A stretch of DNA of 23,837 nucleotides from a virus, in IMG/VR virus record IMGVR_UViG_3300022752_000398, positions 1 to 23,837 of that record; one strand, given 5' to 3'. This document shows, piece after piece, positions 1 through 23,837 of this stretch (its first letter is position 1; every line of letters starts with the position of its first letter). Position numbers and translations under genes: made by a program. The notes beneath the pieces were generated by a model, which was not told where the DNA came from, did no database searches, and worked only from the letters and a program-made list of their open reading frames with translations.

Positions 1-1
1 G

Positions 2-79
2 GCCGGCTGGCAGGATGCCTTCATGCGCGCGGCCGACTACCGCGCGATGTTCGAGGCTCAGGACGGAGGTGCGGCGTGA
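2..79 (+). CDS. 3' end of an unidentified protein (partial)
   Basis: The first 79 bases are open in one frame and end at a TGA at 77-79. They encode the last 25 residues of a protein that begins upstream of the window, ending in ...MFEAQDGGAA. The stop overlaps the GTG start of the lysozyme-like gene by the GTGA arrangement seen throughout the window, which supports it being a real upstream gene in the same operon. The fragment is too short to assign a family. Confidence 0.55.
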   Translation, partial: AGWQDAFMRAADYRAMFEAQDGGAA

Positions 80-468
80 CGAGCCTCTTTCTCTCTCTGA
101 TGCTCGTTCCCCCGCCGGCAGGCCTCGACACGCGCCCGATGCTCGACGCGATCCGCACCGTCGAGACCGGCGGTCACGCTGACCCGGCGAACGCGGTCGG
201 CGACGGCGGCAAGGCGCTCGGCCCCTACCAGATTCACTACGGCTACTGGTTCGACGCGACCGAGCGCGACCCGGCGCTCCGCGCGCTCGGATACCAGAGC
301 GTCCGCGACCAGGCGATCGCCGAGCGCGTCGTCCTCGCGTACCTCACCCGCTATGCGCCGGACTGGAGCCTCCGCACCTGCGCGCGGATCCACAACGGAG
401 GGCCGCGCGGTCACCGCAAGCCGGCGACGCTCGGCTACGCCAAGCGCGTCGAGGAGGTGACCAAGTGA
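76..468 (+). CDS. Lysozyme-like muramidase with N-terminal signal segment (candidate endolysin)
   Basis: This 130-residue protein probably cleaves peptidoglycan in the periplasm or at release. A short hydrophobic N-terminus (about residues 3-16, SLFLSLMLVPPPAG) looks like a signal peptide or signal-arrest segment. The body resembles the invertebrate-type (destabilase-like) lysozyme fold: VETGG at 29-33 with a candidate catalytic Glu30, DGGKALGPYQIH at about 43-54, and CARIHNGGPRG at about 102-112. The GPYQI and IHNGGP signatures are the basis for the call. It starts with GTG at 76, overlapping the previous stop, and its own TGA overlaps the next start. It is separated by about 6 kb from the holin/spanin candidates, so the lysis genes are split. 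It could instead be a virion-associated hydrolase. Confidence 0.72.
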   Translation: MTSLFLSLMLVPPPAGLDTRPMLDAIRTVETGGHADPANAVGDGGKALGPYQIHYGYWFDATERDPALRALGYQSVRDQAIAERVVLAYLTRYAPDWSLRTCARIHNGGPRGHRKPATLGYAKRVEEVTK

Positions 469-683
469 ACGAGTACGCTCGACATCAGAAGAGGATTGAG
501 GTTCTCTGCCGCTGGATCCTTGACGCAAAGACTCCCCAGGCCGCGATCGGCCGCTACGAGTCCGCGCGCGAAAGCGCGGCCGCGACGCCCGGAGACCTGC
601 GCCGTCTCCGCATCGCCAAGCAGCTGGCGCTGACCGCAATCGCACACGAGGCGATCTTCGTTGCCGGATCGCACAAGGACTGA
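465..683 (+). CDS. Small hypothetical protein (72 aa)
   Basis: A short, mainly helical-looking protein with no motif I recognise. It starts with GTG at 465, inside the GTGA overlap with the lysozyme-like gene, and ends five bases before the ATG of the Gp157-family gene. Composition is Ala/Arg/Ile rich without a membrane segment or cysteines. Codon use matches its neighbours and the reading frame fills the gap exactly, which is the main support that it is real. Function unknown. Confidence 0.6.
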   Translation: MNEYARHQKRIEVLCRWILDAKTPQAAIGRYESARESAAATPGDLRRLRIAKQLALTAIAHEAIFVAGSHKD

Positions 684-687
684 TCCC

Positions 688-1200
688 ATGCCAACCATCT
701 ACGAAATCTCCGACGACCTGCGCGCGCTGCACGACCTCCTCGCGGAGTCCGGCGGCGAGCTCACGCCGCAGACCGAAGCCGCGTTCGCGGCGTTCGAGGC
801 CGAACTCTCGAGCGATCTGCACGGCAAGCTCGACCGCTACTGCTCCCTAATCGCAGAACTTGAAGCGCTCGCGACCGCGCGCAAGGCCGAGGCCAAGCGC
901 CTGACCGACCTTGCGCGCACGAACGAACGCTCGGCCGAGGCGCTGCGCGAGCGGCTCCGCTGGGTCTTCGAGGCGAGAGGCCTCGGAACGCAGCAGACCC
1001 AGCGCTTCCGCGTCAGCCTCGCGGCCAACGGCGGGAAGCTGCCGCTCGTCGTCCTCTGCGCCGAGGACGAGCTCCCGGCCTGGGCGACCAAGTCGCGCGT
1101 CACCGCCGACACCGAGGCGATCCGCGAGCGGCTCGAGGCCGGCGAGTCGCTCGCATTCGCACGCCTCGGCGACCGCGGCCGGAGGATCAGCATCCGATGA
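688..1200 (+). CDS. Siphovirus Gp157-like protein
   Basis: A 170-residue protein whose layout fits the Gp157 family of siphoviruses: an N-terminal helix (IYEISDDLRALHDLL), a long helical middle with Y-x-x-L-I-x-x-L-E and a run of Lys/Arg/Glu (K-x-E-A-K-R-L), then the short C-terminal part on LPLVV. The family was linked to phage resistance in Streptococcus thermophilus phages and often sits beside early/replication genes; its biochemical role is unclear. An in-frame TTG at 661 would add nine residues inside the upstream gene, but ATG at 688 follows the upstream stop and begins the conserved region, so I chose it. The TGA overlaps the next ATG. Confidence 0.78.
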   Translation: MPTIYEISDDLRALHDLLAESGGELTPQTEAAFAAFEAELSSDLHGKLDRYCSLIAELEALATARKAEAKRLTDLARTNERSAEALRERLRWVFEARGLGTQQTQRFRVSLAANGGKLPLVVLCAEDELPAWATKSRVTADTEAIRERLEAGESLAFARLGDRGRRISIR

Positions 1201-1442: not shown

Positions 1443-1708
1443 GCCAGCAGCAGACGAGAGGAGCGCTCGCGATCACGCGACGCGAGCGCGAGAAGGTATT
1501 CCTCACCCTCGACGGCCGCAGCCTCGGATACATCGAGGTCGCGCGCATCAGCGGCGAGAAGGTCGTGCTCGCATTCGTGCTTGACCGAGCTGTCCGCATC
1601 CGGCGCGATTTCGAGCAGGGAGCCTGCATCTACTGCGGAGCGGTCGAGTCGCTCGACGAGAAGGGAAGCTGCACGCATTGCAACCGGGATAGGCATGATG
1701 CCGAGTAG
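1439..1708 (+). CDS. CsrA-like RNA-binding protein with C-terminal zinc ribbon
   Basis: This 89-residue protein aligns by eye to CsrA/RsmA over about residues 10-58: L-A-I-T-R-R-E at the start of strand 1, a middle of alternating hydrophobics with ISGEKVVLAF, and AVRIRRDF where CsrA has V-x-x-H-R-E-E. The arginines at the first strand (ITRR) and last strand (IRRD) match the two CsrA RNA-contact surfaces. After it comes CIYC-x11-CTHC, a four-cysteine zinc-ribbon-like module that standard CsrA lacks. Likely role: post-transcriptional control of phage or host mRNAs through GGA sites. SD AGGAG at 1426-1430. Its end overlaps the methyltransferase start. The assignment is by pattern; CsrA similarity is short and needs a structure check. 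Confidence 0.62.
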   Translation: MSQQQTRGALAITRREREKVFLTLDGRSLGYIEVARISGEKVVLAFVLDRAVRIRRDFEQGACIYCGAVESLDEKGSCTHCNRDRHDAE

Positions 1709-2951
1709 CCTTCGCTATCTCTCTGTCTGCTCCGGCATCGAGGCCGCGAGCGTCGCCTGGCATCCGCTCGGCTGGACTCCCGTCGCGTTCAGCGAGATTG
1801 AGCCGTTTCCCTCAACAGTCCTCGCGCATCGCTTTCCCGATGTGCCGAACCTCGGAGACATGACCGCCTATGCAACTTGGCCTCTTCGATCCGGAGACAT
1901 CGACCTCCTCGTCGGAGGAACTCCCTGCCAGTCATTCAGCGTCGCCGGCCTTCGTCAAGGACTCTCCGATCCGCGCGGAGGACTCATGCTCACCTATCTT
2001 GAGATCGCTCAGCGTCTCCGGCCTCGATGGATCGTCTGGGAGAATGTCCCTGGAGTCCTGTCAAGCGGACGAGGAAGGGACTTTGGTTCCTTCCTCGGGG
2101 CGCTGGGGGAACTGGGGTATGGGTGGGCCTATCGGGTTCTGGACGCTCAATGGCTCAGAACACAACGGCACCCACGCGCCGTCCCGCAGCGACGGCGGCG
2201 TGTGTTCGTTGTCGGATGTCTTGGAGACTGGCGAGCTGCCGCCGAGGTTCTCTTTGAGCGCGAAAGCGTGCGCCGGGATCCTGCGCCGCGCGCAGCGTCG
2301 AGGCAAGGATCTTCCGACGATGCTGAAGGCTGCGTTGCTCGCTGCATCACAACAGGGGAAATGAAGCGGCAGGATTACGAAACCTGCACGATGATCGCTC
2401 AAGATGTTGCAGCGACTCTGAACCAGTTTGATACAGGCGAGCGCGACACGCACGCCGTGGCTCACGCATTCTACAGCACGGGCGGGACGCACGGCGTAAA
2501 CCAACATTCTGAAGTATCGCCGGCCGTCAAGGTCGGAAGCGGACTGGGAATACCGTCGCCGCCGGCGGTCGCGTTCAAGACTGGGAACAGCTCAAAGGCC
2601 AGGAGCAATGCGGAGAGCATAGAAGTAACACCAACGCTCGGATCGGACGCAGGTGGGAACACAGTTCCGGCGGTGGCCCACTCTCTCCGCGCCGATGGCT
2701 TTGATGCAAGCGAGGACGGCACCGGGCGCGGGACTCCGCTTGTCCCTCAAGCCATGACCGTGCGCCGGCTGACTCCGCGCGAGTGTGAGCGCCTACAGGG
2801 ATTCCTAGACGACTGGACGCTGATCCCTTGGCGCAAGCGCGACGCGAGCGACTGCCCGGACGGGCCGCGGTACAAGGCGCTCGGAAACAGCATGGCCGTG
2901 AACTGCATGGAATGGATCGGAGAGCGGATCGCCGCTCGGGAGGCACGATGA
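1695..2951 (+). CDS. DNA (cytosine-5) methyltransferase
   Basis: A 418-residue C5-MTase that transfers methyl from S-adenosylmethionine to cytosine in DNA. Motifs in order: I (SVCSGIEAAS, about 10-19), IV with the catalytic Cys (GGTPCQSFSVAG, Cys78), VI (ENV, 116-118), VIII (QRRRR at 165-169), a long variable target-recognition region (about 180-360), IX (RLTPRECERLQGF) and X (GNSMAV). Two adjacent in-frame ATGs, 1695 and 1698, are both possible; the frame is open further upstream but that part lies inside the zinc-ribbon gene. The 3' end overlaps the next ATG (2948). Likely role: protecting phage DNA against host restriction, or epigenetic control. Target sequence unknown. A second gene is overprinted within it (1870-2364). 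Confidence 0.92.
   Translation: MMPSSLRYLSVCSGIEAASVAWHPLGWTPVAFSEIEPFPSTVLAHRFPDVPNLGDMTAYATWPLRSGDIDLLVGGTPCQSFSVAGLRQGLSDPRGGLMLTYLEIAQRLRPRWIVWENVPGVLSSGRGRDFGSFLGALGELGYGWAYRVLDAQWLRTQRHPRAVPQRRRRVFVVGCLGDWRAAAEVLFERESVRRDPAPRAASRQGSSDDAEGCVARCITTGEMKRQDYETCTMIAQDVAATLNQFDTGERDTHAVAHAFYSTGGTHGVNQHSEVSPAVKVGSGLGIPSPPAVAFKTGNSSKARSNAESIEVTPTLGSDAGGNTVPAVAHSLRADGFDASEDGTGRGTPLVPQAMTVRRLTPRECERLQGFLDDWTLIPWRKRDASDCPDGPRYKALGNSMAVNCMEWIGERIAAREAR
1870..2364 (+). CDS. Overprinted protein inside the methyltransferase gene (164 aa)
   Basis: A 164-residue frame on the same strand, shifted relative to the methyltransferase and fully nested in it. It looks like a protein rather than a shadow: a MQLGLFDPE start, a Ser/Pro-rich first part, then W/G/T patches (WGNWGMGGPIGFWTLN) and an ordered C-terminus containing VCSLSDVLETGELPPRF, LSAKACAGILRRAQRRGK and LPTMLKAALLAA. 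I recall very similar segments in small phage proteins encoded with C5-MTases (memory, not searched). ATG at 1870 has GGAGA about 11 bases upstream. The host frame keeps all MTase motifs over the same bases, so both frames seem under constraint. Function unknown; perhaps linked to methylation. Confidence 0.6.
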   Translation: MQLGLFDPETSTSSSEELPASHSASPAFVKDSPIRAEDSCSPILRSLSVSGLDGSSGRMSLESCQADEEGTLVPSSGRWGNWGMGGPIGFWTLNGSEHNGTHAPSRSDGGVCSLSDVLETGELPPRFSLSAKACAGILRRAQRRGKDLPTMLKAALLAASQQGK

Positions 2952-3579: not shown

Positions 3580-3863
3580 GCGGACAGACGACCGTGCAAG
3601 TGAACCTCTCCGACGACTTTGACCCGCTGAACGACGACCTTCGGGCCGACCTCCGATCGGCCTGCGGCGTCGACGGCGAAGACCACAAGTGGAAGATCGA
3701 GGTCGAGGTCGACATCGATCACGACTCGGGCGCGCTCTTCTCCCTGCGCTCAAACCGCTCGGACTCGGGCGGCTACCGCCGGCCGATCGGATCCTTCTAT
3801 GTCACGAAGCAGGAGCTTGAGATCATCCTCGCGAACATGGAGGCCATGAGCGATGGGGACTGA
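3576..3863 (+). CDS. Hypothetical protein (95 aa)
   Basis: An acidic small protein (MSGQTTVQVNLSDDFDPLND...), with a strand-rich centre (WKIEVEVDIDHDSG) and a helical end (VTKQELEIILANMEAMSDGD). The longer open frame from 3090 runs through two upstream genes and is not believable before the ATG at 3576, which has the GGAAG...ACACCATG context used by several genes here. Its last codons GATGGGGACTGA are the first copy of the 18-bp repeat that bounds the HNH gene. Function unknown. Confidence 0.65.
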   Translation: MSGQTTVQVNLSDDFDPLNDDLRADLRSACGVDGEDHKWKIEVEVDIDHDSGALFSLRSNRSDSGGYRRPIGSFYVTKQELEIILANMEAMSDGD

Positions 3864-3869
3864 GCAGCG
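3852..3869 (+). repeat. 18-bp direct repeat, left copy
   Basis: GATGGGGACTGAGCAGCG here is identical to 4414-4431, 562 bases downstream. This copy contains the TGA of the 95-residue gene and the ATG (3853) of the HNH gene. Confidence 0.95.
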
Positions 3870-4425
3870 AGAGGAAGCGCGAAAGAAAAGGCGCAGGAGA
3901 ACCGACAAGCACAAGGCTTGGCGACAAGAAGCCATCGCATACTGGAGCACTCGCGTGTGCGAGTCTGACATCGGATGCGATTGGAACGAGGCGGACATCA
4001 GGTGCTGGCGATGCGGCTGTATGCGGGAGTGTCAGAAATGCCACATCATTCCCAGATCGCTTGGGGGTCTGGACTTCACCCCAAATCTCATTCCTCTCTG
4101 CGCCATGTGTCACGACGAAATGCCCAATGTGCTCGATGCATCCGCGATCTGGCTTTGGATCAAGTCGGATCATGGCGTCATGCACGACACATACTGGGTC
4201 ATGCGAGGCATGAAGGAATCTGGTCTGACTCTTAAACAAGTCGCGCGAATCAAGCCGCGAAAACTCAATCAGACCCTAAGTCGCGCTGGATTCCATTTTG
4301 GTCAGAACGCCGGCGGTATACGACTGACAACGGCGACTCTCGCATGGGTCTTTAGCACGGCATGGAAGGAGTCCATGACCAAAAAGCAGATCCTGAATGC
4401 AACGGAGGCCAGAGATGGGGACTGA
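3853..4425 (+). CDS. HNH endonuclease (probable free-standing homing endonuclease)
   Basis: A 190-residue protein with a basic N-terminus (ARKKRRRRTDKHK), then an HNH nuclease core: CWRC (51-54), CQKCHIIPRSLGG with the first catalytic-type His64, LDFTPNLIPLC with Asn78, and CAMCHDEMPN with His87. The paired CxxC motifs suggest a structural zinc. The C-terminal half (LTLKQVARIKPRKL, MTKKQILNA) looks DNA-binding. Base composition is visibly less GC-rich than neighbours, with more AT-ending codons. The gene sits exactly between two copies of an 18-bp repeat that supplies its start at one end and its stop at the other, the signature of a cleanly inserted selfish gene. It overlaps both neighbours. 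Confidence 0.85.
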   Translation: MGTEQREEARKKRRRRTDKHKAWRQEAIAYWSTRVCESDIGCDWNEADIRCWRCGCMRECQKCHIIPRSLGGLDFTPNLIPLCAMCHDEMPNVLDASAIWLWIKSDHGVMHDTYWVMRGMKESGLTLKQVARIKPRKLNQTLSRAGFHFGQNAGGIRLTTATLAWVFSTAWKESMTKKQILNATEARDGD

Positions 4426-4585: not shown

Positions 4586-4589
4586 GGGC

Positions 4590-5601: not shown

Positions 5602-5612
5602 AGGGAGACACC

Positions 5613-9694: not shown

Positions 9695-10873
9695 TTGCGC
9701 GTCCGTCTGCCGTCGCTCGCGTCCGTCCTGCATCCATCGCAGCGTGAGGTGCACGCCGCGCTCGCGCGGTTCTCCGTGCTCGAGATCGGCCGTCGCTGGG
9801 GTAAGACGACCTTCGGCATCCAACTCGCGATCGACGACGCGGTGTCAGGCCGAAAGGTCGGTTGGTTCGCGCCTTCGTACAAGTACTTGGCCGATCCGGT
9901 GCGCGAGTTCGAGCGCGCGTTGAAGCCTGTCGTGCGCCGCATCGACCGCATCGAGAAGCGAATGGAGCTGAAGACGGACGGTTCCATCGACTTCTGGACG
10001 CTTGAGGACATCGACTCTGGACGCGGCCGCTCGTACGATCGCATCGTTGTCGACGAGGCTGGCTTCGCGCCGCGTCTGCTCGAAGCATGGCGCGCGTCGA
10101 TGCGCGCGACGCTCGCAGACCGCAAGGGCCGCGCACTCTTCCTCGGCACTCCGAAGGGTACCGGAGACTTCCATCGGCTCTATCTCGAGGCCGAGGGAGA
10201 CACGACGGGCGAGTGGCGCGCGTTCCGCATCGGCTCCATCTCGAATCCGCACCTAGACCCCAGCGAGATCGAGGCCGCGCGACGGATGCTCCCGGCCGAG
10301 GTCTTCGCGCAGGAGTTCGAGGGCGTGCCGGCCGAGGACGGCGGCAATCCATTCGGCCTCGACGCGATCCGAGAGTGCATCGCGCCGATGCCAGAGACGA
10401 CCGTCGAATGCTGGGGCGTCGACCTCGCGAAGTCGCAGGACTGGACGGTCGCGGTCGGCCTCGACGGCGAGGGCCGCGTCTGTCGGCTCGACCGTTGGCA
10501 AGGCCCGTGGAGCGTCACGCGCGAGCGTCTCGCGCGCATGATCGGCGACAAGCCGGCGCAGATCGACTCGACCGGCGTCGGCGATCCGATCGTCGAGGAT
10601 CTCCGCAAGGTCTGCCGTCGCGCCGAGGGCTTCAAGTTCACATCTCCAAGCAAACAGCAGCTGATGGAAGGCCTCCAGCTCGCGATCCAGACTCGCGAGA
10701 TCCGCTTCCCGGATGGTTGGTTGCGGAGCGAACTAGAGGCCTTCGGCTTCCGATACTCGGGGAGAGCCGTCTCGTACGAGGCGACGGTCGGGCACGACGA
10801 CGGTGTCTGCGCGCTCGCGCTTGCCGTCCTCGCGCGAAGGCAGCGGAAGCCCCTCCTGCTGAAAGTCATCTGA
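9695..10873 (+). CDS. Terminase large subunit (packaging ATPase/nuclease)
   Basis: A 392-residue motor that pumps and cuts DNA at the portal. ATPase: Walker A G-R-R-W-G-K-T-T at 32-39, Walker B IVVDE at 117-121, motif III LFLGTPKGTGD about 149-158. RNase H-like nuclease: Asp243 in GVDLAKSQDW, Asp291 in IDSTGVGDP and Asp368/369 in GHDDG. The start is TTG at 9695, immediately after the small terminase stop (9692-9694), with GGAG about nine bases upstream; there is no suitable ATG before conserved residues. The TGA (10871-10873) overlaps the portal ATG by one base. Confidence 0.92.
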   Translation: MRVRLPSLASVLHPSQREVHAALARFSVLEIGRRWGKTTFGIQLAIDDAVSGRKVGWFAPSYKYLADPVREFERALKPVVRRIDRIEKRMELKTDGSIDFWTLEDIDSGRGRSYDRIVVDEAGFAPRLLEAWRASMRATLADRKGRALFLGTPKGTGDFHRLYLEAEGDTTGEWRAFRIGSISNPHLDPSEIEAARRMLPAEVFAQEFEGVPAEDGGNPFGLDAIRECIAPMPETTVECWGVDLAKSQDWTVAVGLDGEGRVCRLDRWQGPWSVTRERLARMIGDKPAQIDSTGVGDPIVEDLRKVCRRAEGFKFTSPSKQQLMEGLQLAIQTREIRFPDGWLRSELEAFGFRYSGRAVSYEATVGHDDGVCALALAVLARRQRKPLLLKVI

Positions 10874-13800
10874 TGCTACTGAGCCGAATCAAGGCAGCAC
10901 TCAACGCCAACCGCTGGCTCCAGTCCTCGATGCGGATCGTCTCAGGCGGCGGCGATGCCGCGCGCCAGCCCTTCTCGTATCAGGCCGCGGTCATGGCGAA
11001 CCGCTCGTGGATCTATGCGGCCGCGCACCTGAACGCGCAGGCCGTCGCAAGCCAGCCGCTGCGCCTCTATGTGCGCTCACGCGGAACGGCCGTCAAGCTC
11101 TGGAAGACTGCGCGTCCGTCGCGCGCGACCTTTGCGCGCTTTGCCGGCGAGCGCGACGACCGTCCGTCGCCGTTCGTCATGCAGAAGGCCGCGGAGTTCG
11201 GTGAGGACTACGAGGTCGTCACCGAGGCGCATCCGGTGCTGACGCTCCTCGACCAGCCGAACGCGTACACGAACGGCTACGAGGCGACGATGCTCCGGAT
11301 CCTGTTTCAGGAGCTCACGGGCAACGCGTACCTTCATCCGGTCATCGACTCGCAGACGGGCGTGCCTGTCGAGCTCTGGTCGATGCCGTCGCAGTATGTC
11401 GAGATCGTTCCCGGAAAGACGCAGTTCATCGACGCGTACCTCTACGGCGCGTCGCGCGACCAGCGCCGGATCTTCGCGGCCGACGAGGTCATTCACTTCA
11501 AGCGCCCGAATCCCGGAGATCTGTACTACGGCCTCGGCAAGCTCGAGGCCGCATGGGGCGCAGCGACGATGAACGCGGCCGTGAAGGACATGGATCTGTC
11601 CTTCTTCCAGAACAAGGCGCGGCCCGACTACCTGCTCACGATCAAGAGCAACGCGTCGCAAGAGGAGATCGAGCGGCTCGAGGTGCAGATCGACGAGAAG
11701 CTCCGCGGCAAGGAGCGGACGGGACGCTTCCTGACCGCGACGGCTGACATCGACCTGAAGCCGATGAACTTCCCGCCGAAGGATCTCGGCGGACGCGAGG
11801 ACATCGTCGAGGAGATCGCGGCCGTGTTCGGCGTTCCGGTCTCGATGCTGAAGGCGAACGACCCGAACCTCGCGAGCGCGACGGTCGGCTTCCAGTCGTG
11901 GAAGGCGATCTCCGTGCTCCCTCTGCTTCGCCTGGACGAGCAGACGCTCAACTCGCAGCTCCTCCCGCTCTTCGGCATCGAGGACGATGCATTCCTCGCG
12001 TACGATTCGCCCGTCGTCGAGGACGAGAAGTTCGAGTTCGAGAAGCGCCGCTCGTCGGTCGCGGCCGGAATCATCACGGCGAACGAGGCGCGCAAGCTTG
12101 AAGGCCTCGAGCCTGTCGACGACGAGATGGCCGATCGACTGCTGATCAACGGACAGCCGCTCGGCGGCCCGGCTCCTGCGATGCCGACTCTGCCGTTTGG
12201 CGCTAGTATCCAAACGGATACGCCTGCCCCCGCTCCGCAGCCCGAGCGCAAGGACGCGCTCGCGGACTGCGTTTCCGAGAAGATCCCGACGCTTATCGCC
12301 GAGGGATACGAGCAGGATCAGGCCGTCGCGATCGCCTACTCAATGTGCCGCGACGGCAAGACGCTAGAGGACATCCTCGATGAGCGCGGATCGCAGATGC
12401 GCTCGAAGGCGCTCTCGGACATCGACACGAAGCCTCCGCAGACGGTCGCCGACAACGCGCGCCGAGCGCTTGAAGTTCGCGCGCGGAAGCCTGAGTCGCA
12501 GCGCGGGATGACCGCGGTCGGCATCGCTCGGGCGAGAGACCTAGCGAATCGCGTCGAGCTCTCCGAAGACACGATCCGGCGGATGCTTGCGTACTTCGAG
12601 CGGCACGAGGTCGACAAGCAGGGCGAGACATGGGACGACCAGGGCAAGGGCTGGCAGGCGTGGAACGGCTGGGGCGGCGACGACGGCTTTGCGTGGGCGC
12701 GGCGCAAGGTCGAGCAGTTCGACCGCGAGCGCGAGCGAAAGGCCGCAGGCAAGTCGCTTTCGACGAAGTGCGGTTGCGGATGTGGATGCGACGAAGCCGA
12801 AGAGACATTCGAGATGTCTGCCGAGATGTTCGCAAAGATCGTCTCAGAGCTTGAACTGGAGACAGAGGATCAGGGCGAGGAGATCCTCAAGAACTGCGGA
12901 GTAGGTTCGGAGGGATTTGAAGAAGGCAACACCTGCGCTGGCGGCGGAGGTGGAGGCGGCGGAAGTTCCGGATCTTCGAAGCCTGCTGCAAAGCCGACAT
13001 CGGAAAAGCCGTCCAAGCCATCGAAGCCGTCCAAGCCGAAGGTCGGAAAGCCTGACAAGGGCAAGCCTCCGGCAGAAGGCATGGCAGCACCAAAGCAGCA
13101 TTCAATCGCGCTTCCACCGAAGCCGAACAAGATCAACATCGACCAGGCCGAAAGCGCGCTGCGTTCGATGGGATACGAGATGACTGCGTGGAAGCCTTCT
13201 GCGACTGGAACCACAGTTTCCATCAAGGATCCATCCGGCAAGGAGACGAAGCTTCCTGTTCACGAAGCCATCAATCTGATCTATGCGAACAGCAGCGACC
13301 CGAAGGCAAACGCGGCGCCAGCCGTCAAGCCAAAGAAGTCTGCTCCTGCCATCTCGCAAAAGGCGCTTTGGAGCGTGATGACGAAGGCGAGCGAGCGCGA
13401 CGCCGAGCGCGAGTTCGACAAGATCACCGAGCAGGAGCAGGAGATCGGCAAGGCCGTCTCCAAGGTTCTCGAGAAGCAGGTCGCCGAGGTCATCGCCGCG
13501 ATCCGCAAGGAAGGCCGGCCGACTCGCGCGACCGTGCAGAAGGTCGAGAAGATCCTCCGCGAAAGCCGCTGGAACGCTGAGCTCGTCAACGCGCTCCGGC
13601 CGTACCTCGCGGACGCGATCACGCAGGGCGTCTCGCTCGGACTCGACACGGTCGGCAAGATGATCACGGGAGCGCCCGACTTCACGCCGGCGCGCGACGA
13701 CCTCCGCGCCTACGCGCAGTCCGAGTCCGTGCGCCTCGCTCGCACGGCCGCTGCAGGAGTCAACCGCTACACCTCCGTCCGCGTCGGCGAGATCCTCGGC

Positions 13801-14283
13801 GACGGCATCGCGGACGGCGAGACCATCGACCAGCTCGCGAGCCGCGTGCAGGACTGGGCAGGCGAGAAGGGCGACGCCGACCGCGCGACGCGCAACCGCG
13901 CCGTGACGATCGCTCGCACCGAGGCGCAGCGCGCGACGCGCAAGGCCGAGCTCGAGGCGTGGAAGTCGACGGGCATCGTCGAGGGGAAGACTTGGCTCCT
14001 CGCGCCGGATCCGTGCGAGTTCTGCGAGGCCGCGGCGAAGGCGTTCGAATCGAAGGCAGTCGGCCTCGACGACTCGTTCTACCAGAAGGGCGAGACGCTC
14101 GAAGGCGCGGACGGCGGCGCGCTCGTCCTCGACTACGAGGCGATCGACGCTCCCCCGCTGCACCCGAACTGCCGATGCTCGATGGAGCCGAAGCTTGCCG
14201 GCGAGTACGGCGCGATTCAGGACGAGATCAACGCCGAGGTCGATGAATACTTCGAGCAGCTCAAAAGGGAGCAGCAGGCATGA
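10873..14283 (+). CDS. Portal protein fused to Mu gpF-like head morphogenesis protein
   Basis: One open frame of 1136 residues. Residues 1-about 440 are an HK97-family portal (ANRSWIYAAAHLNAQAVA, LTGNAYLHPV, VIHFKRPNPGDLYYGLG, an EEIAAVFGVPVSML core), the dodecameric DNA gate. About 460-620 is a segment with DALADCVSEKIPTL, AVAIAYSMC and GKGWQAWNGWGGDDG. About 630-830 is a lower-GC linker: CGCGCGC, NCGVG...GNTCAGGGG, a Ser/Lys/Pro repeat and a small domain with MGYEMTAWKPS. About 840-1136 is MuF-like: TIARTEAQRATRKAE (about 1011), DPCEFCEAA and LHPNCRCSMEP. MuF proteins are normally a separate gene. ATG 10873 follows the terminase stop; the open frame back to 10087 is a shadow. Confidence 0.85.
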   Translation: MLLSRIKAALNANRWLQSSMRIVSGGGDAARQPFSYQAAVMANRSWIYAAAHLNAQAVASQPLRLYVRSRGTAVKLWKTARPSRATFARFAGERDDRPSPFVMQKAAEFGEDYEVVTEAHPVLTLLDQPNAYTNGYEATMLRILFQELTGNAYLHPVIDSQTGVPVELWSMPSQYVEIVPGKTQFIDAYLYGASRDQRRIFAADEVIHFKRPNPGDLYYGLGKLEAAWGAATMNAAVKDMDLSFFQNKARPDYLLTIKSNASQEEIERLEVQIDEKLRGKERTGRFLTATADIDLKPMNFPPKDLGGREDIVEEIAAVFGVPVSMLKANDPNLASATVGFQSWKAISVLPLLRLDEQTLNSQLLPLFGIEDDAFLAYDSPVVEDEKFEFEKRRSSVAAGIITANEARKLEGLEPVDDEMADRLLINGQPLGGPAPAMPTLPFGASIQTDTPAPAPQPERKDALADCVSEKIPTLIAEGYEQDQAVAIAYSMCRDGKTLEDILDERGSQMRSKALSDIDTKPPQTVADNARRALEVRARKPESQRGMTAVGIARARDLANRVELSEDTIRRMLAYFERHEVDKQGETWDDQGKGWQAWNGWGGDDGFAWARRKVEQFDRERERKAAGKSLSTKCGCGCGCDEAEETFEMSAEMFAKIVSELELETEDQGEEILKNCGVGSEGFEEGNTCAGGGGGGGGSSGSSKPAAKPTSEKPSKPSKPSKPKVGKPDKGKPPAEGMAAPKQHSIALPPKPNKINIDQAESALRSMGYEMTAWKPSATGTTVSIKDPSGKETKLPVHEAINLIYANSSDPKANAAPAVKPKKSAPAISQKALWSVMTKASERDAEREFDKITEQEQEIGKAVSKVLEKQVAEVIAAIRKEGRPTRATVQKVEKILRESRWNAELVNALRPYLADAITQGVSLGLDTVGKMITGAPDFTPARDDLRAYAQSESVRLARTAAAGVNRYTSVRVGEILGDGIADGETIDQLASRVQDWAGEKGDADRATRNRAVTIARTEAQRATRKAELEAWKSTGIVEGKTWLLAPDPCEFCEAAAKAFESKAVGLDDSFYQKGETLEGADGGALVLDYEAIDAPPLHPNCRCSMEPKLAGEYGAIQDEINAEVDEYFEQLKREQQA
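13006..13041 (+). repeat. Short in-frame tandem repeat coding SKP/PSK
   Basis: AAGCCGTCCAAGCC occurs at 13006-13019 and again at 13024-13037 (18-base period made of two 9-base units), encoding the Lys-Pro-Ser repeats of the flexible linker. Replication slippage could change its length between relatives. Confidence 0.8.
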
Positions 14284-14951: not shown

Positions 14952-15031
14952 TCCTGCGACGCGGCCTACGGCGAGTGCCTGCAAGCGCGTCTTGATGGTG
15001 CGAGAGGCGGATCCCAACGGAGGATCTGCTC
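14952..15031. other. 80-base gap before the major capsid gene
   Basis: No gene. AACGGAGGA at 15017-15025 is a strong ribosome binding site for the capsid start at 15032. A promoter or RNA processing site could lie here to raise capsid expression, but I see no convincing -35/-10 pair. Confidence 0.5.
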
Positions 15032-16417
15032 ATGCAGACCATGAATCTCGACAAGTTCCGCGAGGCGCTCACCCTCGCGGCGCGCGTCAAGGGCGAGCCG
15101 GGCGTCGTTGCCCAGAAGAAGCTCATCCTTGACCGCTACATGATCGTCGACGCCGACGGCGTCGCGGTCGATCCCGAAACACTCGATGTCACCATCGCTC
15201 CGGCCGCTCTCGCGGTCGAAGAGGACGCCGCCAAGCCGGCGGAGGAAGACCCCATGACCAACGAAGAGATCACGAAGAGCGTCCGCGCGGTCGTCGCTGC
15301 GGAGCTGAAGGCGTCGCCGCGCGCGAACGCCGTCGTCGCCGAGCCGAAGGCGTGGGAAACCGCCAAGGTTTACGGCAAGCTGAAGAACCTCACGAACAAG
15401 GAGCAGGCCTTCCGCTTCGGCACCTGGTGCCTCGGCGCGATGGGTCACAAGCGGTCGGCCGACTGGTGCGCGGCCAACGGCCTCGCGCTCCGCACGAAGG
15501 GTCACACCGAAGGCGTGAACAGCGCTGGCGGCTTCCTCGTGCCGGACGAGTTCGAGAACGAGCTCATCACCCTCCGCGAGCAGTACGGCGTCTTCCGTCG
15601 CAACGCGCGCATCTGGCCGATGTCGAGCGACACTCTTCGCATCCCGAAGCGCTCGTCGACTCTGACCGCGTACTTCGTCGGCGAGGCCGCTGCCGGCACC
15701 GAGTCGCAGCAGGTCTTTGACAGCGTGCAGCTCGTCGCAAAGAAGCTGATGGCTCTCACCACGGTCTCGAGCGAGCTGCTCGAGGACGCGGTCGTGAACA
15801 TCGGCGACGACATCGCCGGCGAGATCGCGTACGCGTTCGCGCTCAAGGAGGACGGCTGCGGCTTCCTCGGCGACGGCACCTCGACCTACGGTGGCATCGT
15901 CGGCCTTGAGAACGCGCTCACGAACGCGACCTACCAGATCAGCGACGGAGCTGCGACCGCTCCGAGCGGCGTCCTTCTCGCCGAGATCAACGCCGCCTTC
16001 GGCAAGCTCCCGGCGTGGGCTTACCAGCGCAACGGCGTGAAGATCTACTGCCACAAGTCGATCTACCACACCGTCTTCGAGAAGCTCGCAATGGCGGCTG
16101 GCGGCGTGACCGCTGCCGAGATCGCGGCCGGAATGCAGCCGCGCTTCTTCGGCTACCCGGTCGAGTTCGCTCAGGTGATGAATACCTCGGCCAGCCTCGC
16201 CAGCGCCGGTTCAGGCACTTTCGCGTTCATCGGCGACCTCTCGCAGGGTTGCTACCTCGGCGACCGTCGCTCGACCGCGATTGCGTTCTCCGACTCGGCG
16301 CTCAACGCGTTCGAGCAGGACGAGCGCGTCGTCCGCGGCACCGAGCGGTTCGACATCGTCTGCGCCAATGTCGGCTCGTCCACCGAGTCGGGCGCGGTCA
16401 TCAAGCTCACCCTCTGA
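15032..16417 (+). CDS. Major capsid protein, HK97 fold
   Basis: A 461-residue protein, the main head shell. Residues 1-about 115 are a charged, Ala/Glu-rich scaffold-like delta domain, probably removed by the protease. The mature part starts near WETAKVYGKLKNLTNKEQAF and includes the HK97 signatures GVNSAGGFLVPDEFENELI, YFVGEAAAGTESQQVFDSV (E-loop region), LTTVSSELLEDA, and the C-terminal GDLSQGCYLGDRRS with DERVVRGTERFDIVCAN. Preceded by a strong GGAGGA. The order protease-capsid-decoration fits the family. Confidence 0.93.
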   Translation: MQTMNLDKFREALTLAARVKGEPGVVAQKKLILDRYMIVDADGVAVDPETLDVTIAPAALAVEEDAAKPAEEDPMTNEEITKSVRAVVAAELKASPRANAVVAEPKAWETAKVYGKLKNLTNKEQAFRFGTWCLGAMGHKRSADWCAANGLALRTKGHTEGVNSAGGFLVPDEFENELITLREQYGVFRRNARIWPMSSDTLRIPKRSSTLTAYFVGEAAAGTESQQVFDSVQLVAKKLMALTTVSSELLEDAVVNIGDDIAGEIAYAFALKEDGCGFLGDGTSTYGGIVGLENALTNATYQISDGAATAPSGVLLAEINAAFGKLPAWAYQRNGVKIYCHKSIYHTVFEKLAMAAGGVTAAEIAAGMQPRFFGYPVEFAQVMNTSASLASAGSGTFAFIGDLSQGCYLGDRRSTAIAFSDSALNAFEQDERVVRGTERFDIVCANVGSSTESGAVIKLTL

Positions 16418-16435
16418 TCGGAAGGACTTCCACAC

Positions 16436-16882
16436 ATGGTTCCCAGCAACAGCAAGACGGTCGTCCTCGCGGTCAACACGAACACGAGCGGCGTCTCCAC
16501 TCTCACGGCGACGGTCGACACGAAGGGCTTCTCCTTCGCGAAGATCCTCTGCCTCTCCTCCTCCACCGGCACGGTCTCGACCGGCACGAACAACAAGATC
16601 GAAGACGCGGATGCCTCCACCGGCACCTTCGCGACCTTCGCTGGCTTCGTGCAGGGCACGGACTGGACTGGCTCGACCTCGACCAACAGCACGCAGAACG
16701 CGAAGGTTGTCTGGAACATCCCGCTCCAGGGCCGCAAGCGTTACCTGAAGGTCACCTTCACGCACGCGACCGCTGGTGTCGGCGAGGTTCTGCTCGCCGA
16801 GCTCGAGCGTCCCTCGAACGGCATCTCGGCTTCGACCGAGGCGTTCGAGTCGACCGATGTCGGCAACATCATCGGCCTCTGA
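16436..16882 (+). CDS. Capsid decoration-like protein (beta-rich, 148 aa)
   Basis: A Thr/Ser/Val-rich beta protein immediately after the capsid gene. It has VDTKGFSFAKILCLSSS (Asp28, Gly31, Phe32), a middle FATFAGFVQGTDW and a conserved LQGRKRYLKVTFTH near residue 96-109, ending in LAELERPSNGIS. I know this order (DTxGF ... GRKRYLKV) from head-decoration or minor-capsid proteins of many uncultured tailed phages, but this is memory. The next gene carries the same pieces split around an enzyme. Upstream GGAAGG ribosome site. Followed by a hairpin. Confidence 0.68.
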   Translation: MVPSNSKTVVLAVNTNTSGVSTLTATVDTKGFSFAKILCLSSSTGTVSTGTNNKIEDADASTGTFATFAGFVQGTDWTGSTSTNSTQNAKVVWNIPLQGRKRYLKVTFTHATAGVGEVLLAELERPSNGISASTEAFESTDVGNIIGL

Positions 16883-16896
16883 TCCCTCTCTCTCAC

Positions 16897-16930
16897 GGGC
16901 TGCGCGCCGAAAGGCGCGCGGCCTGTTTCC
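16897..16930 (+). terminator. GNRA-loop hairpin after decoration gene (probable terminator/attenuator)
   Basis: GGGCTGCGCGCC (16897-16908) pairs with GGCGCGCGGCCT (16913-16924) with a GAAA tetraloop (two wobble pairs), followed by GTTTCC. It sits between the highly expressed capsid/decoration genes and the SGNH gene and occupies the place where the next ribosome binding site should be. The T-tract is short, so termination may be partial. Confidence 0.6.
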
Positions 16931-18688
16931 ATGAAGTCATCCAACGATCTGCGCCCTACGGGCATCGTCGTCGCGGAAAGCCTCACCTCGAGTCAGACCG
17001 CGTCGTTCCAGTTCGACACGATCGGCTTCAATGCCGCGTCTGTCGTCGTTTCCTCGCGGAGCGTCTCGGAGTCGGTCTTCGGCTCCGAGGTCGTCGGATC
17101 GTGGATCTCCGACGCGACCAACGGCACGGACTCCATCGACTTCCTGTTCATCGGAGACAGCAATGTCTTCTATCAGGTGAGCGGATCCCGATGCTACGGC
17201 TACTTCGCAGGCTTCCACTACGCGATGCTCCAGCAGGGAGCGACGATGTACGGGACTGCGGTGACTCCGCTCTATCGCGGAGACACCTCAAACGCGACGG
17301 TCGGCTACCTCGGCAACGGAGCCAATGTCGTCGAGGACGACGCGAACTTCATCAATGCGACAACCAAGCGCGGATCGACTCGTGGGCCAGATGAGCTCTC
17401 GAAGTACATCAATGGCGGACCGTTCTCGTGGAATCCAGAGAGCACCGGAAGCGCAGACTTCCTCAGCATTCGCAACACGACAGCCTACGGCGGGTCGACT
17501 CAGGCCTATCAGGGAGCGACCGGAATCTATCTTGACTCCGCGCAGACTGCCTTCAACACGCAGAGCGCGACTCGATATCGCCTGGTGCGCGGCAAGGTGC
17601 CTGCGAGCCGCATCGGCTCGTATCAAGGATATGTGTACAAGGCCGGCGGAAATGTCGCAGGTTCTCGCGTCGTGACGACTTCTGCTGGCGTGGAAACCCT
17701 GATCCGGGAAGGCTCGTACGAGTGGGTCGCCGACGAGATGAACATCGCAGCCGCGACCTCGACTGCGTCGTACAGCGTCCACTACGCGCAGCAGAGTGTC
17801 GGCGACAATCTCGGCGTGCAGGGCGAGGTAAATCTCGCCTACCAGTCGGTCTATCGTCCGTCGACCAAGGGCTTCGCGGTCTCCGCGATGCACGCGCGAG
17901 GCGGAGCGAAGATGTCGGACATGGTCAACTCGCTGCTTGGCGCTACGGACGACGGGATCAAGCTGATCCTCGCCGAGATCCGGAAGCGTCAGGTTCGCGC
18001 CGGCGGCACGGGTCGCGTCTGCATGGTCGTCGAGGGAGGCTCCAACGCAGACACCGGAGTCCCGCAGTCGTGGGCGACGAACCTTGAGAAGATGCTCGAC
18101 AAGGTTTCGCGCGCATGGAGCCAGCTCGGCTTCCCGGCCGCTGACCTTGCGTTCCTCGCGTTCGTCTCGCAGCAGCGCGACTCGAACGATACGACCAATG
18201 TCAACCTCCGTCCGCTCGCGCGCAGTTGGGCGCTCGGCGACGGACGCCGGGACAACCTGACCGTAGTCGAGACAAAGAACCTGTTCACCTATGCGGAACT
18301 CAATGCCTACGCGACTGGCGGCGATACGCTCCATCTGACCGCAGACGGCTACAACTTCGTCGCCAATGCCATCGTGACTGCGCTGGTCGCTTCGCAGCCT
18401 TCCACCGCGGCGTTCTCCACCTTCCGGGCCTACGAGTCAGACGACCGAGCCAACTGGTCGGAGATGACAAACTTCTCGTCGATGACCGCAGGCGCGCAGG
18501 CGTTCGGAAACCAGCGGTATCCTCGCGCCGTGCTTTCGACCGACCGAGTGGGCCGCAAGCGCTTCCTTCGCGTCGATGTCACGCCAGGAGGAACAGCAGA
18601 CATCGCGGCCTTCGCGGTGATGAGCCAGCCCAGCAACCAGGTCACGACAGCGGCCGATGTGAAGGCTACGCTGCTCGTGCAGGGATAA
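16931..18688 (+). CDS. SGNH/GDSL-type hydrolase in a decoration-protein frame
   Basis: A 585-residue protein. The centre has SGNH hallmarks: FLFIGDSN with nucleophile Ser77, an Asn in VVEGGSNAD (about 372) and D-T-L-H (Asp465, His468) within GGDTLHLTADGYNF, so it probably removes acyl or acetyl groups from a glycan or other ester. The N-terminus (VVAESLTSSQTASF, FDTIGFNAASVVVSS) and the C-terminus (FSTFRAYESDDRANW, VGRKRFLRVDV, MSQPSNQVTT) match the two halves of the upstream decoration protein, as if the enzyme were inserted into that fold. Start ATG 16931 lacks a clear ribosome site and lies behind a hairpin. Likely attached to the capsid surface. Confidence 0.75.
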   Translation: MKSSNDLRPTGIVVAESLTSSQTASFQFDTIGFNAASVVVSSRSVSESVFGSEVVGSWISDATNGTDSIDFLFIGDSNVFYQVSGSRCYGYFAGFHYAMLQQGATMYGTAVTPLYRGDTSNATVGYLGNGANVVEDDANFINATTKRGSTRGPDELSKYINGGPFSWNPESTGSADFLSIRNTTAYGGSTQAYQGATGIYLDSAQTAFNTQSATRYRLVRGKVPASRIGSYQGYVYKAGGNVAGSRVVTTSAGVETLIREGSYEWVADEMNIAAATSTASYSVHYAQQSVGDNLGVQGEVNLAYQSVYRPSTKGFAVSAMHARGGAKMSDMVNSLLGATDDGIKLILAEIRKRQVRAGGTGRVCMVVEGGSNADTGVPQSWATNLEKMLDKVSRAWSQLGFPAADLAFLAFVSQQRDSNDTTNVNLRPLARSWALGDGRRDNLTVVETKNLFTYAELNAYATGGDTLHLTADGYNFVANAIVTALVASQPSTAAFSTFRAYESDDRANWSEMTNFSSMTAGAQAFGNQRYPRAVLSTDRVGRKRFLRVDVTPGGTADIAAFAVMSQPSNQVTTAADVKATLLVQG

Positions 18689-18700
18689 AGGAGAGAGAAC

Positions 18701-20022: not shown

Positions 20023-20827
20023 CACCTACGCGCTGACCAGCCTCGCGAACCTCAAGAGCTATCTCGGGATCAGCTCGTCGAGCGACGACACGATCCTCGA
20101 GAAGTCCATCGACCGCGCGTCGGATATCGTCGAGAGCTACCTCGGCCGCAAGATCCTGAGCCGCGCGTTCGTCGAGTGGCGCGACACCTTCGGGAAGGAT
20201 CGGATCGCGCTGCGCCAGTACCCGGTCACGGGCGTTCGGTTCGTGGGCGTCGGCTACAACGCGGCGATCACGGTCGGCGCGAGCTCTCCGCTTGATCCGG
20301 CGGTTTCAATCACGGTCGGCGACTCGTCGGTCATCCTCTACCGCCAGGTCGCCGCAGGCACCGACACGACAACGACGCTGACCTTCGCGACCTATCCGAC
20401 GACGGCGCTCATGGCCGCTGCGATCGCCGCGACCGCCGGCTTTACGGCCTCGGTCGTGCTCGACCTGCCGAGCCGCTACATGAGGCGCTTCGCCGGCCGA
20501 ACGCTCCGCAATGCGACGGTGAACCTCGAGGCTCCGGATCAGGCCGTTGAGGACTACCTCGCGGACTTCGACCGCGGTGTCGTCTATGGGCGACAGCTCA
20601 CGGGATACCGCGCGGTGCTGATCGACTACACGGCCGGCTACGCGACCGTGCCGGACGACATCGAGCAGGCCTGCCTTATGGTTGCTGCTTCGATCTATCA
20701 GGGCCGCAAGCGAGATCCGAATCTGAACAGCGAGGCGCTCGGCGGCTACTCGTACAGCCTGCGCGCTCCCGGTCAGGCGACGGAGGAGGCTCGCACGATG
20801 CTCGAGGGATACAAGGCGATCCGATGA
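20012..20827 (+). CDS. Head-tail connector (HK97 gp6/adaptor-like)
   Basis: A 271-residue adaptor that would dock under the portal. The N-terminal helices (LANLKSYLGISSSSDD, ILEKSIDRASDIVESYLGRK) and the later helix (DDIEQACLMVAASIYQGRKR) are the usual gp6-type connector pattern. Between them lies an unusually long, beta-rich stretch (about residues 65-170, with ITVGASSPLDP and TTTTLTFATYP), so the protein is about twice the common length. Overlaps both neighbours (ATG at 20012, ATGA at 20824). Confidence 0.78.
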   Translation: MAVDTYALTSLANLKSYLGISSSSDDTILEKSIDRASDIVESYLGRKILSRAFVEWRDTFGKDRIALRQYPVTGVRFVGVGYNAAITVGASSPLDPAVSITVGDSSVILYRQVAAGTDTTTTLTFATYPTTALMAAAIAATAGFTASVVLDLPSRYMRRFAGRTLRNATVNLEAPDQAVEDYLADFDRGVVYGRQLTGYRAVLIDYTAGYATVPDDIEQACLMVAASIYQGRKRDPNLNSEALGGYSYSLRAPGQATEEARTMLEGYKAIR

Positions 20828-22085: not shown

Positions 22086-22092
22086 GGTAACT

Positions 22093-22515: not shown

Positions 22516-22516
22516 G

Positions 22517-22786
22517 ATGAGCCTTGAGAGGGTTCAGCAAGTCGCGACTCCGCAGGCTGACGACTGGATCGTCACGCTCAAGCTTCGTTCCGGCGGCATC
22601 GTTACGCGGCGCGTGACGCCCGGTCGGATCGACGCAGAGTTCGCGCTCCGCTGCGCGCTGCGCGCTCAGGGAGTCAAGCCGCAAGAGGTTTCCGACGCGG
22701 AGATCCGACGCGCTGGCGCGGCGCGCGTTGTCGTGCCGGTCGACGACGGCTTCGCTGATCTGATGAGGAGGGCCAAGAATGATTAG
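22517..22786 (+). CDS. Small hypothetical tail-region protein (89 aa)
   Basis: A charged alpha-beta protein (ADDWIVTLKLRSGGIVTRRV, PGRIDAEFALRCALRAQG, EVSDAEIRRAGAARVVVPVD). It sits between the tail tube and chaperone genes and overlaps the latter by eight bases. No known family recognised. Confidence 0.62.
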   Translation: MSLERVQQVATPQADDWIVTLKLRSGGIVTRRVTPGRIDAEFALRCALRAQGVKPQEVSDAEIRRAGAARVVVPVDDGFADLMRRAKND

Positions 22787-23168
22787 GATCGCACCGTGGG
22801 CCGTCGACCTGCTCGACGGCTCGAAGGCAAAGCTCCGGCCGCTGACCGTCCGCGAGCGCATTGCTGTCGCCGACGACTACTCGGAGACCGAGGCGCGACG
22901 CGCCGCTGCTGACGCAAAGGCGCTCGGCATGGGTCACGCCGAGGCGCTCAAGCACATCAGCGAGAGCCGCAGAAGGGCGCGCGTCGCCTCGGCGCTCATC
23001 ATGGACTGCTTCACGCACGATGGCGCCATGCGCGTCCTGCGAGCCGCCAGCGATGACGCGGAGCGCATCGCCTCGATGATCGAGCCGAAAGACCTCTCGT
23101 ACCTGGCGCTTGAGTGCCTCGGCATCGACACCGAGGCCGCGACGCAAGGGACGCCGGGAAACGGCTGA
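22779..23168 (+). CDS. Tail assembly chaperone, short (gpG-like) form
   Basis: A 129-residue helical protein read without frameshift, ending TGA at 23166-23168. IAPWAVDLLDGSKAKLRPLT then helices ERIAVADDYSETEARR and VASALIMDCFTHDG fit tail chaperones that bind the tape measure during tail assembly. Near the stop lies a -1 slippery site (23156-23162), so this is the short product of a G/GT-type pair, as in phage lambda. Placement directly before the tape measure supports the role. Confidence 0.8.
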   Translation: MIRIAPWAVDLLDGSKAKLRPLTVRERIAVADDYSETEARRAAADAKALGMGHAEALKHISESRRRARVASALIMDCFTHDGAMRVLRAASDDAERIASMIEPKDLSYLALECLGIDTEAATQGTPGNG

Positions 23169-23365
23169 GTCCCTCGGTGCCTGAGGTGCCGAGGGACTGG
23201 ATCAAGGAGGCGCACATGATCGCTCGCGCAGCACCCGGACTCGGCAACCCGCTCGACCTGACGGTCGGCGAGTTCTCGCGTCATCTCGAGCTTGCGCTGC
23301 GCGGTGACGACGCGGAGTCCGGCGAGAACTGGATGCGGCGCTATGTCGAGGAGTCCGTGCGATGA
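22779..23365 (+). CDS. Tail assembly chaperone, long (gpGT-like) form made by -1 frameshift
   Basis: A -1 shift at GGGAAAC (23156-23162) would carry ribosomes from the short chaperone into the frame ending at 23365, adding about 67 residues (RLSPSVPEVPRDWIKEA, then PLDLTVGEFSRHLELAL) to give about 195 residues. The downstream frame has no convincing independent start and is protein-like. The long form would link the coated tape measure to tube subunits. Frameshift efficiency cannot be told from sequence. Confidence 0.78.
23156..23198 (+). promoter_or_regulatory. Programmed -1 ribosomal frameshift signal
   Basis: GGGAAAC is in exact X-XXY-YYZ register with the chaperone frame (G GGA AAC; codons at 23157 and 23160). 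Five bases downstream, 23168-23181 pairs with 23185-23198 in a 14-bp stem (10 Watson-Crick pairs, two wobble pairs, two C-G pairs) with a TGA triloop. The zero-frame stop (23166-23168) is at the base of the stem. Confidence 0.88.
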
Positions 23366-23837
23366 AGGGCGGAGAGATCCACATCGCTGTCACAGCGCAG
23401 ATGCAGGCATTCGACAAGTCGATGCAGGAGGTCGAGCAAAAGGCTCGCGGCATCGGCGGCAAGTTCGCCGACAACTTTGCTGCTGGTGCCGAAGGAATGA
23501 TGGGCAAGCTGACGAAGATGTTCGCCGGCCCGATGATCTTCGCAGGCATCGCGGACGGGATCGCCGATCTCCTGAAGAACGGCGGCTCCGTGCAGCAGAA
23601 GGTCGAGGAGTTCCTCGATAAAATCCCATTCTTCGGATCGTTCACTCGACTCGGCAAGGAGCTCGAGAAGACGCTATCCGGCGAGCGGCTTGATGTGCTC
23701 CAGAGTCAGGTCGGATACGAGGAGCAGGCGCTCGCGGACGCCGCGTACCAGAACGCGCTCGCCGCCGAGAAGAAGCTCCTGGCAGAGCGCGACTCGCTTC
23801 AGGCGCAGCGCGAGAGCCTTGAGCTCCGAAAGATCGC
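23362..23837 (+). CDS. Tape measure protein, N-terminus (runs off window)
   Basis: 158 residues to the window edge, no stop. GEIHIAVTAQMQAFDKSMQE is a typical tape-measure opening, followed by GIGGKFADNFAAGAEGMMGK, a hydrophobic patch (MIFAGIADGIADLL) and a long helical, heptad-like stretch (EKKLLAERDSLQAQRESLEL). It sets tail length and is ejected ahead of DNA. ATG 23362 overlaps the stop of the frameshifted chaperone frame (ATGA), as in many siphoviruses. Confidence 0.85.
   Translation, partial: MKGGEIHIAVTAQMQAFDKSMQEVEQKARGIGGKFADNFAAGAEGMMGKLTKMFAGPMIFAGIADGIADLLKNGGSVQQKVEEFLDKIPFFGSFTRLGKELEKTLSGERLDVLQSQVGYEEQALADAAYQNALAAEKKLLAERDSLQAQRESLELRKI

What the first reader, a model, noticed from the sequence alone, without database searches (positions are those of the whole stretch)
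1..23837. ACGT appears to be absent from the whole window, with context-dependent codon switching
Reading every line and junction by eye I found no ACGT on either strand (it is its own reverse complement), although ACGA, ACGC, ACGG and CGTC are common. At an assumed 64% GC, independent bases would predict on the order of 80 sites. Codon choice follows this: Asp-Val is written GATGTC/GATGTG, Asn-Val AATGTC and Tyr-Val TATGTC although GAC/AAC/TAC dominate elsewhere, and Thr is ACC before T-starting codons but ACG otherwise (around 20361-20400: ACG ACA ACG ACG CTG ACC TTC GCG ACC TAT). Other palindromes (TCGA, AGCT, GATC, GTAC, CTAG) are present. This looks like selection against a restriction site. 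The phage's own C5-MTase or an unrelated host system could be the cause.
Basis: partly seen in the sequence, partly recalled or inferred. Interest (0 to 1): 0.8.

Follow-up and report, generated by a model that had tools for sequence, protein, structure and literature searches.

The report
Phage genome purged of ACGT
This phage fragment, like many but not all of its close relatives, has lost every copy of the four-letter word ACGT while its protein-coding frames stay open, most likely to escape a bacterial DNA-cutting enzyme; the strategy is known, but here it switches on and off between close relatives and in one contig appears to travel with a swapped genome segment.

Summary
Confirmed: ACGT occurs 0 times in 23,837 bp against 72 expected, and codon choice switches exactly where ACGT would form. 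GGWCC is nearly gone too (1 vs about 50). The window is one whole virus record of a tailed phage without a close match among the phage records searched. Uncultured relatives are bimodal: of 54 distinct loci with enough sequence, 22 are ACGT-free, 1 intermediate, 31 above 0.4 of expectation; on a TerL tree the state changed at least 6 times on branches with support of 95 or more. Elimination is almost confined to palindromes (26 of 356 palindromic versus 1 of 3002 other 4-mer tests), and lineages lack different sets. This is the signature of avoidance of orthodox Type II restriction sites, a known strategy (PMC6286503). The phage's own C5-methyltransferase is not the cause: ACGT-free sisters lack it. 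Deamination is not excluded as a minor contributor. Newest element: one contig, L012, is ACGT-bearing in 2 kb related to an ACGT-bearing phage and ACGT-free in the remaining 11.9 kb. Host and enzyme were not found.

The parts
1..23837 (.). ACGT-free sequence (0 sites, 72.4 expected); the whole record
17417..17421 (.). the only GGWCC site (GGACC) in the window, about 50 expected
1695..2951 (+). C5 cytosine DNA methyltransferase gene (PF00145, 9e-45); missing from ACGT-free sister phages, so not the cause
3853..4425 (+). HNH endonuclease-like gene (Pfam matches just under the curated cut-offs; PHROG HNH 1.5e-7); no tblastn match at 1e-5 in the 233 loci then held, so not a shared cause
9695..10873 (+). 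terminase large subunit, used to collect relatives and as tree marker
10870..14283 (+). portal and head-morphogenesis protein in one frame
15032..16417 (+). major capsid protein, used to collect relatives

Best explanation
[quoted passage not shown] Mutants with fewer sites survive infection more often, until none is left; proteins can be kept because ACGT can be removed by a synonymous change (NAC|GTN to NAT|GTN, ACG|T to ACC/ACT/ACA|T, A|CGT to A|CGC). When a lineage meets hosts without that enzyme, sites drift back or arrive with recombined segments, so the state flips within the family. Shown: absence, codon switching, palindrome specificity, repeated change of state, one contig with a state switch that follows ancestry. 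Inferred: the enzyme, the host, the direction of each switch, and that the contig is a real recombinant.
For: 0 of 72 and codon switching. Relatives bimodal: 22 free, 1 intermediate, 31 above 0.4, of 54 distinct loci with at least 15 expected (6 more too short; 60 distinct kept of 153). At least 9 changes on the TerL tree, 6 keeping only branches with support of 95 or more; 500 label shuffles give mean 18.6, minimum 14. Eliminated 4-mers: 26 of 356 palindromic versus 1 of 3002 other tests over 29 distinct contigs; 6-mers 15 of 222 versus 1 of 2570 (the distant record G012 was left out). Lineages lack different combinations of ACGT, AGCT, CCGG, GGCC, GGWCC, CCWGG. No tyrosine integrase: 0 of 25 records match PF00589; site elimination is commoner in non-temperate phages and for orthodox Type II sites (PMC6286503, text parts 1-4 of 5 read).
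Against: No host is known and no ACGT-specific R-M gene was found. The only cellular association at high identity is a Rhodobacteraceae MAG with two contigs of a relative; the bin also holds contigs that I read as other phages, and this relative is not ACGT-free (35 of 67 and 8 of 21). CpG transitions are enriched among replaced ACGT sites (16 of 30 and 22 of 43, against 244 of 769 and 314 of 935; p 0.017 and 0.021), and stratified by codon phase a weaker excess remains (p 0.047 and 0.10, not independent). Many relatives counted as bearing ACGT are at 0.4-0.8 of expectation (63 of 178 rows) and 9 of 178 at 0.2-0.4, so the division is not perfectly clean.
Confidence: 0.83

Rival explanations
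1. The phage's own gene is responsible: its C5-MTase, or a phage nuclease that cuts host DNA at ACGT while the phage lacks the site.
For: The window encodes a C5-MTase matching nearly the whole Pfam profile and an HNH-like gene.
Against: ACGT-free sisters lack the C5-MTase; the HNH gene has no match in 233 loci. Among 14 ACGT-free and 10 ACGT-bearing records, with ORFs of five ACGT-free records as queries, none tracked the state: the best scored 8 of 14 versus 0 of 10 (a 62-residue reverse-frame ORF); among ORFs in at least five of six long ACGT-free records the best was 8 of 14 versus 1 of 10 (records incomplete). Other lineages have lost several other palindromes.
Confidence: 0.05
2. Mutational decay: a methylase modifies C in ACGT and deamination turns it into ATGT/ACAT.
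For: ATGT and ACAT have the highest ratios among the one-base neighbours (1.68 and 1.41). CpG transitions are enriched among replaced sites, with a residual excess after codon phase is matched (stratified p 0.047 for G013, 0.10 for G014; A|CGT sites of G013 alone 4 of 5 versus 3 of 20, p 0.012).
Against: At NAC|GT, where C-to-T is the synonymous change, 13 of 18 versus 29 of 53 and 8 of 11 versus 18 of 34, not significant. In the window Thr before T is ACC 43, ACT 6, ACA 6, not mainly ACA. That decay alone would reach exactly zero in tens of kilobases is unlikely (inference).
Confidence: 0.06
3. Compositional or codon bias, perhaps shared with the host.
For: None found beyond the depletion itself.
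Against: Relatives of similar GC have normal ACGT (G017, GC 0.636, 117 of 120; window GC 0.651). 77 kb of a candidate host bin has 103 of 111 (host link weak). Synonymous shuffles never fell below 40.
Confidence: 0.01
4. Selection by another ACGT-reading defence rather than an orthodox Type II enzyme.
For: No enzyme identified; any defence that reads ACGT would leave the same trace.
Against: Rusinov et al. report eliminated sites almost only for orthodox Type II (7.1% versus under 0.5% for other types; PMC6286503). Loss of several different short palindromes fits Type II.
Confidence: 0.05

Closest known systems
Restriction-site avoidance by non-temperate dsDNA phages (Rusinov et al. 2018, PMC6286503; the earlier work of Sharp 1986 and Rocha 2001 seen only as cited there)
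   Same: Near-complete loss of short palindromic sites from a dsDNA phage genome; complete or almost complete elimination is reported there for about one tenth of viral genomes.
   Different: Host and enzyme are unknown here; ACGT is the word most often lost in this uncultured family (11 of 29 contigs); the state changes at least six times among relatives; a segment-wise switch is visible in one contig.
Type II R-M systems cutting ACGT (HpyCH4IV, MaeII, TaiI; names recalled, from no call)
   Same: Their recognition sequence is the purged word.
   Different: No such gene was identified here.

Membership tests
Phage restriction-site avoidance (criteria of PMC6286503) | Site eliminated: observed/expected below 0.1 with more than 15 expected | tested here: met
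   0 of 72.4; maximal-order Markov used, not their Burge statistic
Phage restriction-site avoidance (criteria of PMC6286503) | Avoided sites are of orthodox Type II kind (here: short palindromes) | tested here: met
   ACGT and GGWCC in the window; family-wide 26 of 356 palindromic versus 1 of 3002 other 4-mer tests. That an enzyme of this kind is at work is not shown
Phage restriction-site avoidance (criteria of PMC6286503) | Host encodes an enzyme with that specificity | not tested
   host unknown; no enzyme identified
Phage restriction-site avoidance (criteria of PMC6286503) | dsDNA phage | tested here: met
   terminase, portal and major head protein genes; that such genes imply dsDNA is established knowledge
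Phage restriction-site avoidance (criteria of PMC6286503) | Non-temperate lifestyle (favours elimination, not strictly required) | tested here: inconclusive
   0 of 25 records match PF00589, many of them fragments; serine integrases and repressors not searched
   candidate bin 103 of 111 in 77 kb, but its host status is weak

The most novel reading that the evidence does not exclude
In this phage family the absence of a restriction word behaves as a switchable record of past hosts, kept separately by each genome segment: purged and unpurged relatives recombine, leaving word-free blocks whose edges mark the exchange, so a module's motif deficits tell which restriction environment it came from.
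Probability: 0.45. Interest if true: 0.6.

Novelty: new member of a known kind. Interest (0 to 1): 0.45.

Why it matters
It offers a natural experiment for restriction-driven phage evolution: similar genomes with and without ACGT, repeated switches, and at least one contig in which word state follows ancestry. The set of purged words could serve as a fingerprint of host restriction enzymes for phages whose hosts are unknown, and as a tracer of recombination.

Tried and rejected
Own C5-MTase or HNH nuclease as cause: rejected. MTase content of 34 records: PF01555 in 3 of 16 ACGT-free and 8 of 18 other records (p 0.15), PF00145 in 4 of 16 and 2 of 18 (p 0.39); no relation shown. Gene-content association: nothing tracks the state. 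Deamination as sole cause: not supported, but a residual excess of CpG transitions after phase matching is not explained away; this check, made last, moved that rival from 0.04 to 0.06 and the main explanation from 0.85 to 0.83. GANTC as an alphaproteobacterial signature: 0.91-1.17 of expectation in 15 records, uninformative.

Host search: TerL at E 1e-30 found in 1 of 198 genomes of the MAG's family, the MAG itself. A nucleotide search of 394 genomes gave matches in 112 at E 0.001; beyond the MAG the best are one of 484 bases at 68% and one of 161 at 72%, the rest short. I read none as a CRISPR spacer but did not inspect their surroundings. tRNAs: one tRNA-Gly, in G004, among 5 phages scanned. 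Cultured phages: no megablast match; TerL matches 1033 records, all under 60% identity, the 40 listed at most 39.5%.

Block scan: 778 motif-contig tests over 45 records; after Bonferroni only L012 passes (log10 p bound -5.22). G015 (-4.02) passes only if ACGT alone is counted (at most 45 tests); G013 (-2.90) passes neither way. In the first, ACGT-only scan of 76 partly overlapping loci, permutation p was 0.0005-0.001 for these three, at or near the floor. Best-match identity did not reveal an ACGT-free donor for G015's block. L012 could be a misassembly of two strains of one metagenome; reads were not available.

Literature: searches listed no paper that I recognise, from titles and abstract starts, as treating mosaic absence of restriction words in phages; the library is open-access only. 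Hiraoka 2019 (PMC6329791, passages only) has no ACGT motif in its main text but tabulates lake methyltransferases most similar to ones for GGWCC and AGCT. PMC9426551: passages only.

Full report
ACGT is absent from all 23,837 bases; 72.4 copies are expected from a maximal-order Markov model, and at least 8.9 in each of six consecutive segments. In 34 coding frames, 1000 synonymous shuffles, which keep the window's own (already biased) codon usage, gave 55.6 on average and never fewer than 40. The codon switching is absolute: NAC before GTN 0 of 34, ACG before T 0 of 55, CGT after A 0 of 27, against 717 of 892, 223 of 415 and 40 of 492 elsewhere. A second word, GGWCC, is nearly purged as well: 1 site against about 50.

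The window is the whole of one virus record (completeness not given) with terminase, portal, head maturation and major head protein genes of a tailed phage. It has no megablast match among 50,697 phage records, and its terminase is under 60% identical to that of all 1033 phage records matched, at most 39.5% among the 40 listed. Relatives were collected by terminase, C5-MTase and capsid (the best 80 of each kept, 233 loci in all).

The relatives fall largely into two groups. Of 178 rows (loci of all three searches, contigs partly overlapping, and the window) with at least 20 sites expected from base composition, 34 have under 0.05 of the Markov expectation, 1 lies between 0.05 and 0.2, 9 between 0.2 and 0.4, and 134 above, with a peak at 0.8-0.9. 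After removing loci that share identical stretches, 60 of 153 terminase and capsid loci remain; 6 are too short to call, and of the other 54, 22 are ACGT-free (under 0.1), 1 is intermediate and 31 are above 0.4. On a terminase tree of 78 rows (21 free, 52 normal, 5 low) the low rows were set aside and at least 9 changes of state are needed, 6 if only branches with support of 95 or more are kept, 4 at 99; 500 shuffles of the labels need 18.6 on average, minimum 14. The tree is a quick one with SH-aLRT support only. The state is thus inherited but flips repeatedly; such counts cannot tell gain from loss.

What is lost is palindromic. Over 29 distinct contigs of at least 11 kb (the distant record G012 left out), 26 of 356 tests on palindromic 4-mers and 1 of 3002 on other 4-mers show elimination: ACGT 11, AGCT 10, CCGG 3, GGCC 2, and GCCC once; for 6-mers 15 of 222 versus 1 of 2570. 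Combinations differ by lineage: the window and its sisters lack or nearly lack ACGT and GGWCC; G005 and G007 also AGCT, CCGG and GGCC; G009 ACGT, CCGG, CCWGG and GGNCC; G008, of the words tested, only ACGT; G020-G022 keep ACGT (0.78-0.88) but lack AGCT and CCWGG. This matches avoidance of orthodox Type II restriction sites as described by Rusinov et al. (PMC6286503, text parts 1-4 of 5 read), who report complete or almost complete elimination in about one tenth of viral genomes.

Own genes are not the cause. The sister G001 (33,090 bp, ACGT 0 of 102) has no C5-MTase match, nor do the shorter G002, G026, G027 and G028; in L002, L004 and L005 genes from both sides of the MTase are present and the MTase is not. 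The HNH gene of the window is found in none of the 233 loci. No ORF is present in all ACGT-free and missing from all ACGT-bearing records (14 and 10 records, ORFs of five ACGT-free ones as queries). Incomplete records limit this test.

Mutation alone is unlikely but not wholly excluded as a contributor. At sites where G013 or G014 has ACGT, the ACGT-free relative G003 has kept 0 of 30 and 0 of 43 (as it must, having one ACGT in all), although 61% and 55% of other NCGN sites are kept. Replacements include CpG transitions in 16 of 30 and 22 of 43 cases, above the 244 of 769 and 314 of 935 of other changed NCGN sites (p 0.017 and 0.021). At NAC|GT, where that is the synonymous change, the difference is not significant (13 of 18 versus 29 of 53; 8 of 11 versus 18 of 34), but stratified over phases an excess remains at p 0.10 and 0.047. 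In the window itself Thr before T is ACC in 43 of 55 cases and ACA in 6, which decay of ACG|T would not give.

A segment-wise switch is the most interesting part. Contig L012 has 8 ACGT in its first 2 kb (9.0 expected) and 0 in the remaining 11.9 kb (34.5 expected). The first 2 kb are 92-96% identical to ACGT-bearing G014 and 76-81% to ACGT-free G003; in the 1 kb windows from 7 kb on it is 93-97% identical to G003, the closest of six relatives compared, and 78-91% to G014. Between 2 and 7 kb the closest relative varies (L009, L011 or G003). The block survives correction for 778 tests. A misassembly of two strains cannot be excluded without reads. G015 (0 of 21.0 over 10291-18102) and G013 (0 of 19.2 over 18384-26672) look similar but do not survive that correction, and protein similarity did not identify an ACGT-free donor for G015.

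Host: the only high-identity cellular association is a Rhodobacteraceae MAG with two contigs of an ACGT-bearing relative. That bin also holds MTase-bearing contigs that look like other phages (my reading of the ORFs), so I do not take it as the host. In 77 kb of its other contigs ACGT is 103 of 111. The restriction enzyme is therefore inferred, not shown.

Verdict: a strong and clean case of a known anti-restriction strategy, in an uncultured family where it toggles and may recombine. New member of a known kind; interest moderate.

Noticed in passing
window 1-23837: GGWCC nearly absent (1 vs about 50 expected); sisters G001, G002, G028, L004, L005 share it (1-5 sites each).
   Followed up: yes
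window 1-23837: CCATGG 0 vs 8.8, GGCGCC 2 vs 16.6, CATGT 1 vs 13.2 expected: weaker deficits, possibly further avoided sites.
   Followed up: no
L012 1-13866: Contig whose ACGT state and closest relative change together at about 2 kb.
   Followed up: partly
L258 10291-18102 (G015) and L254-L255 (G013 18384-26672): ACGT-free blocks of about 8 kb in otherwise ACGT-bearing genomes; not significant after correction over all motifs.
   Followed up: partly
L252 (G012, 16.5 kb; a distant phage found through the MTase): Many palindromes depleted at once: ACGT, AGCT, CCGG, CGCG, CTAG 0-1 each; TCGA, GATC, GCGC reduced.
   Followed up: no
L241-L242 (G005), L245-L246 (G007): Five restriction-like palindromes purged or nearly so in one genome: ACGT, AGCT, CCGG, GGCC, GGWCC.
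   Followed up: no
records G001, G010, G015, G024: N4/N6-type DNA methyltransferase domains ending about 1.5-1.6 kb before the portal match, thus probably just upstream of the terminase genes.
   Followed up: no
L294-L299 (bin G034, 77 kb): GTAC is depleted (22 vs 63 expected) in the contigs of the Rhodobacteraceae MAG.
   Followed up: no
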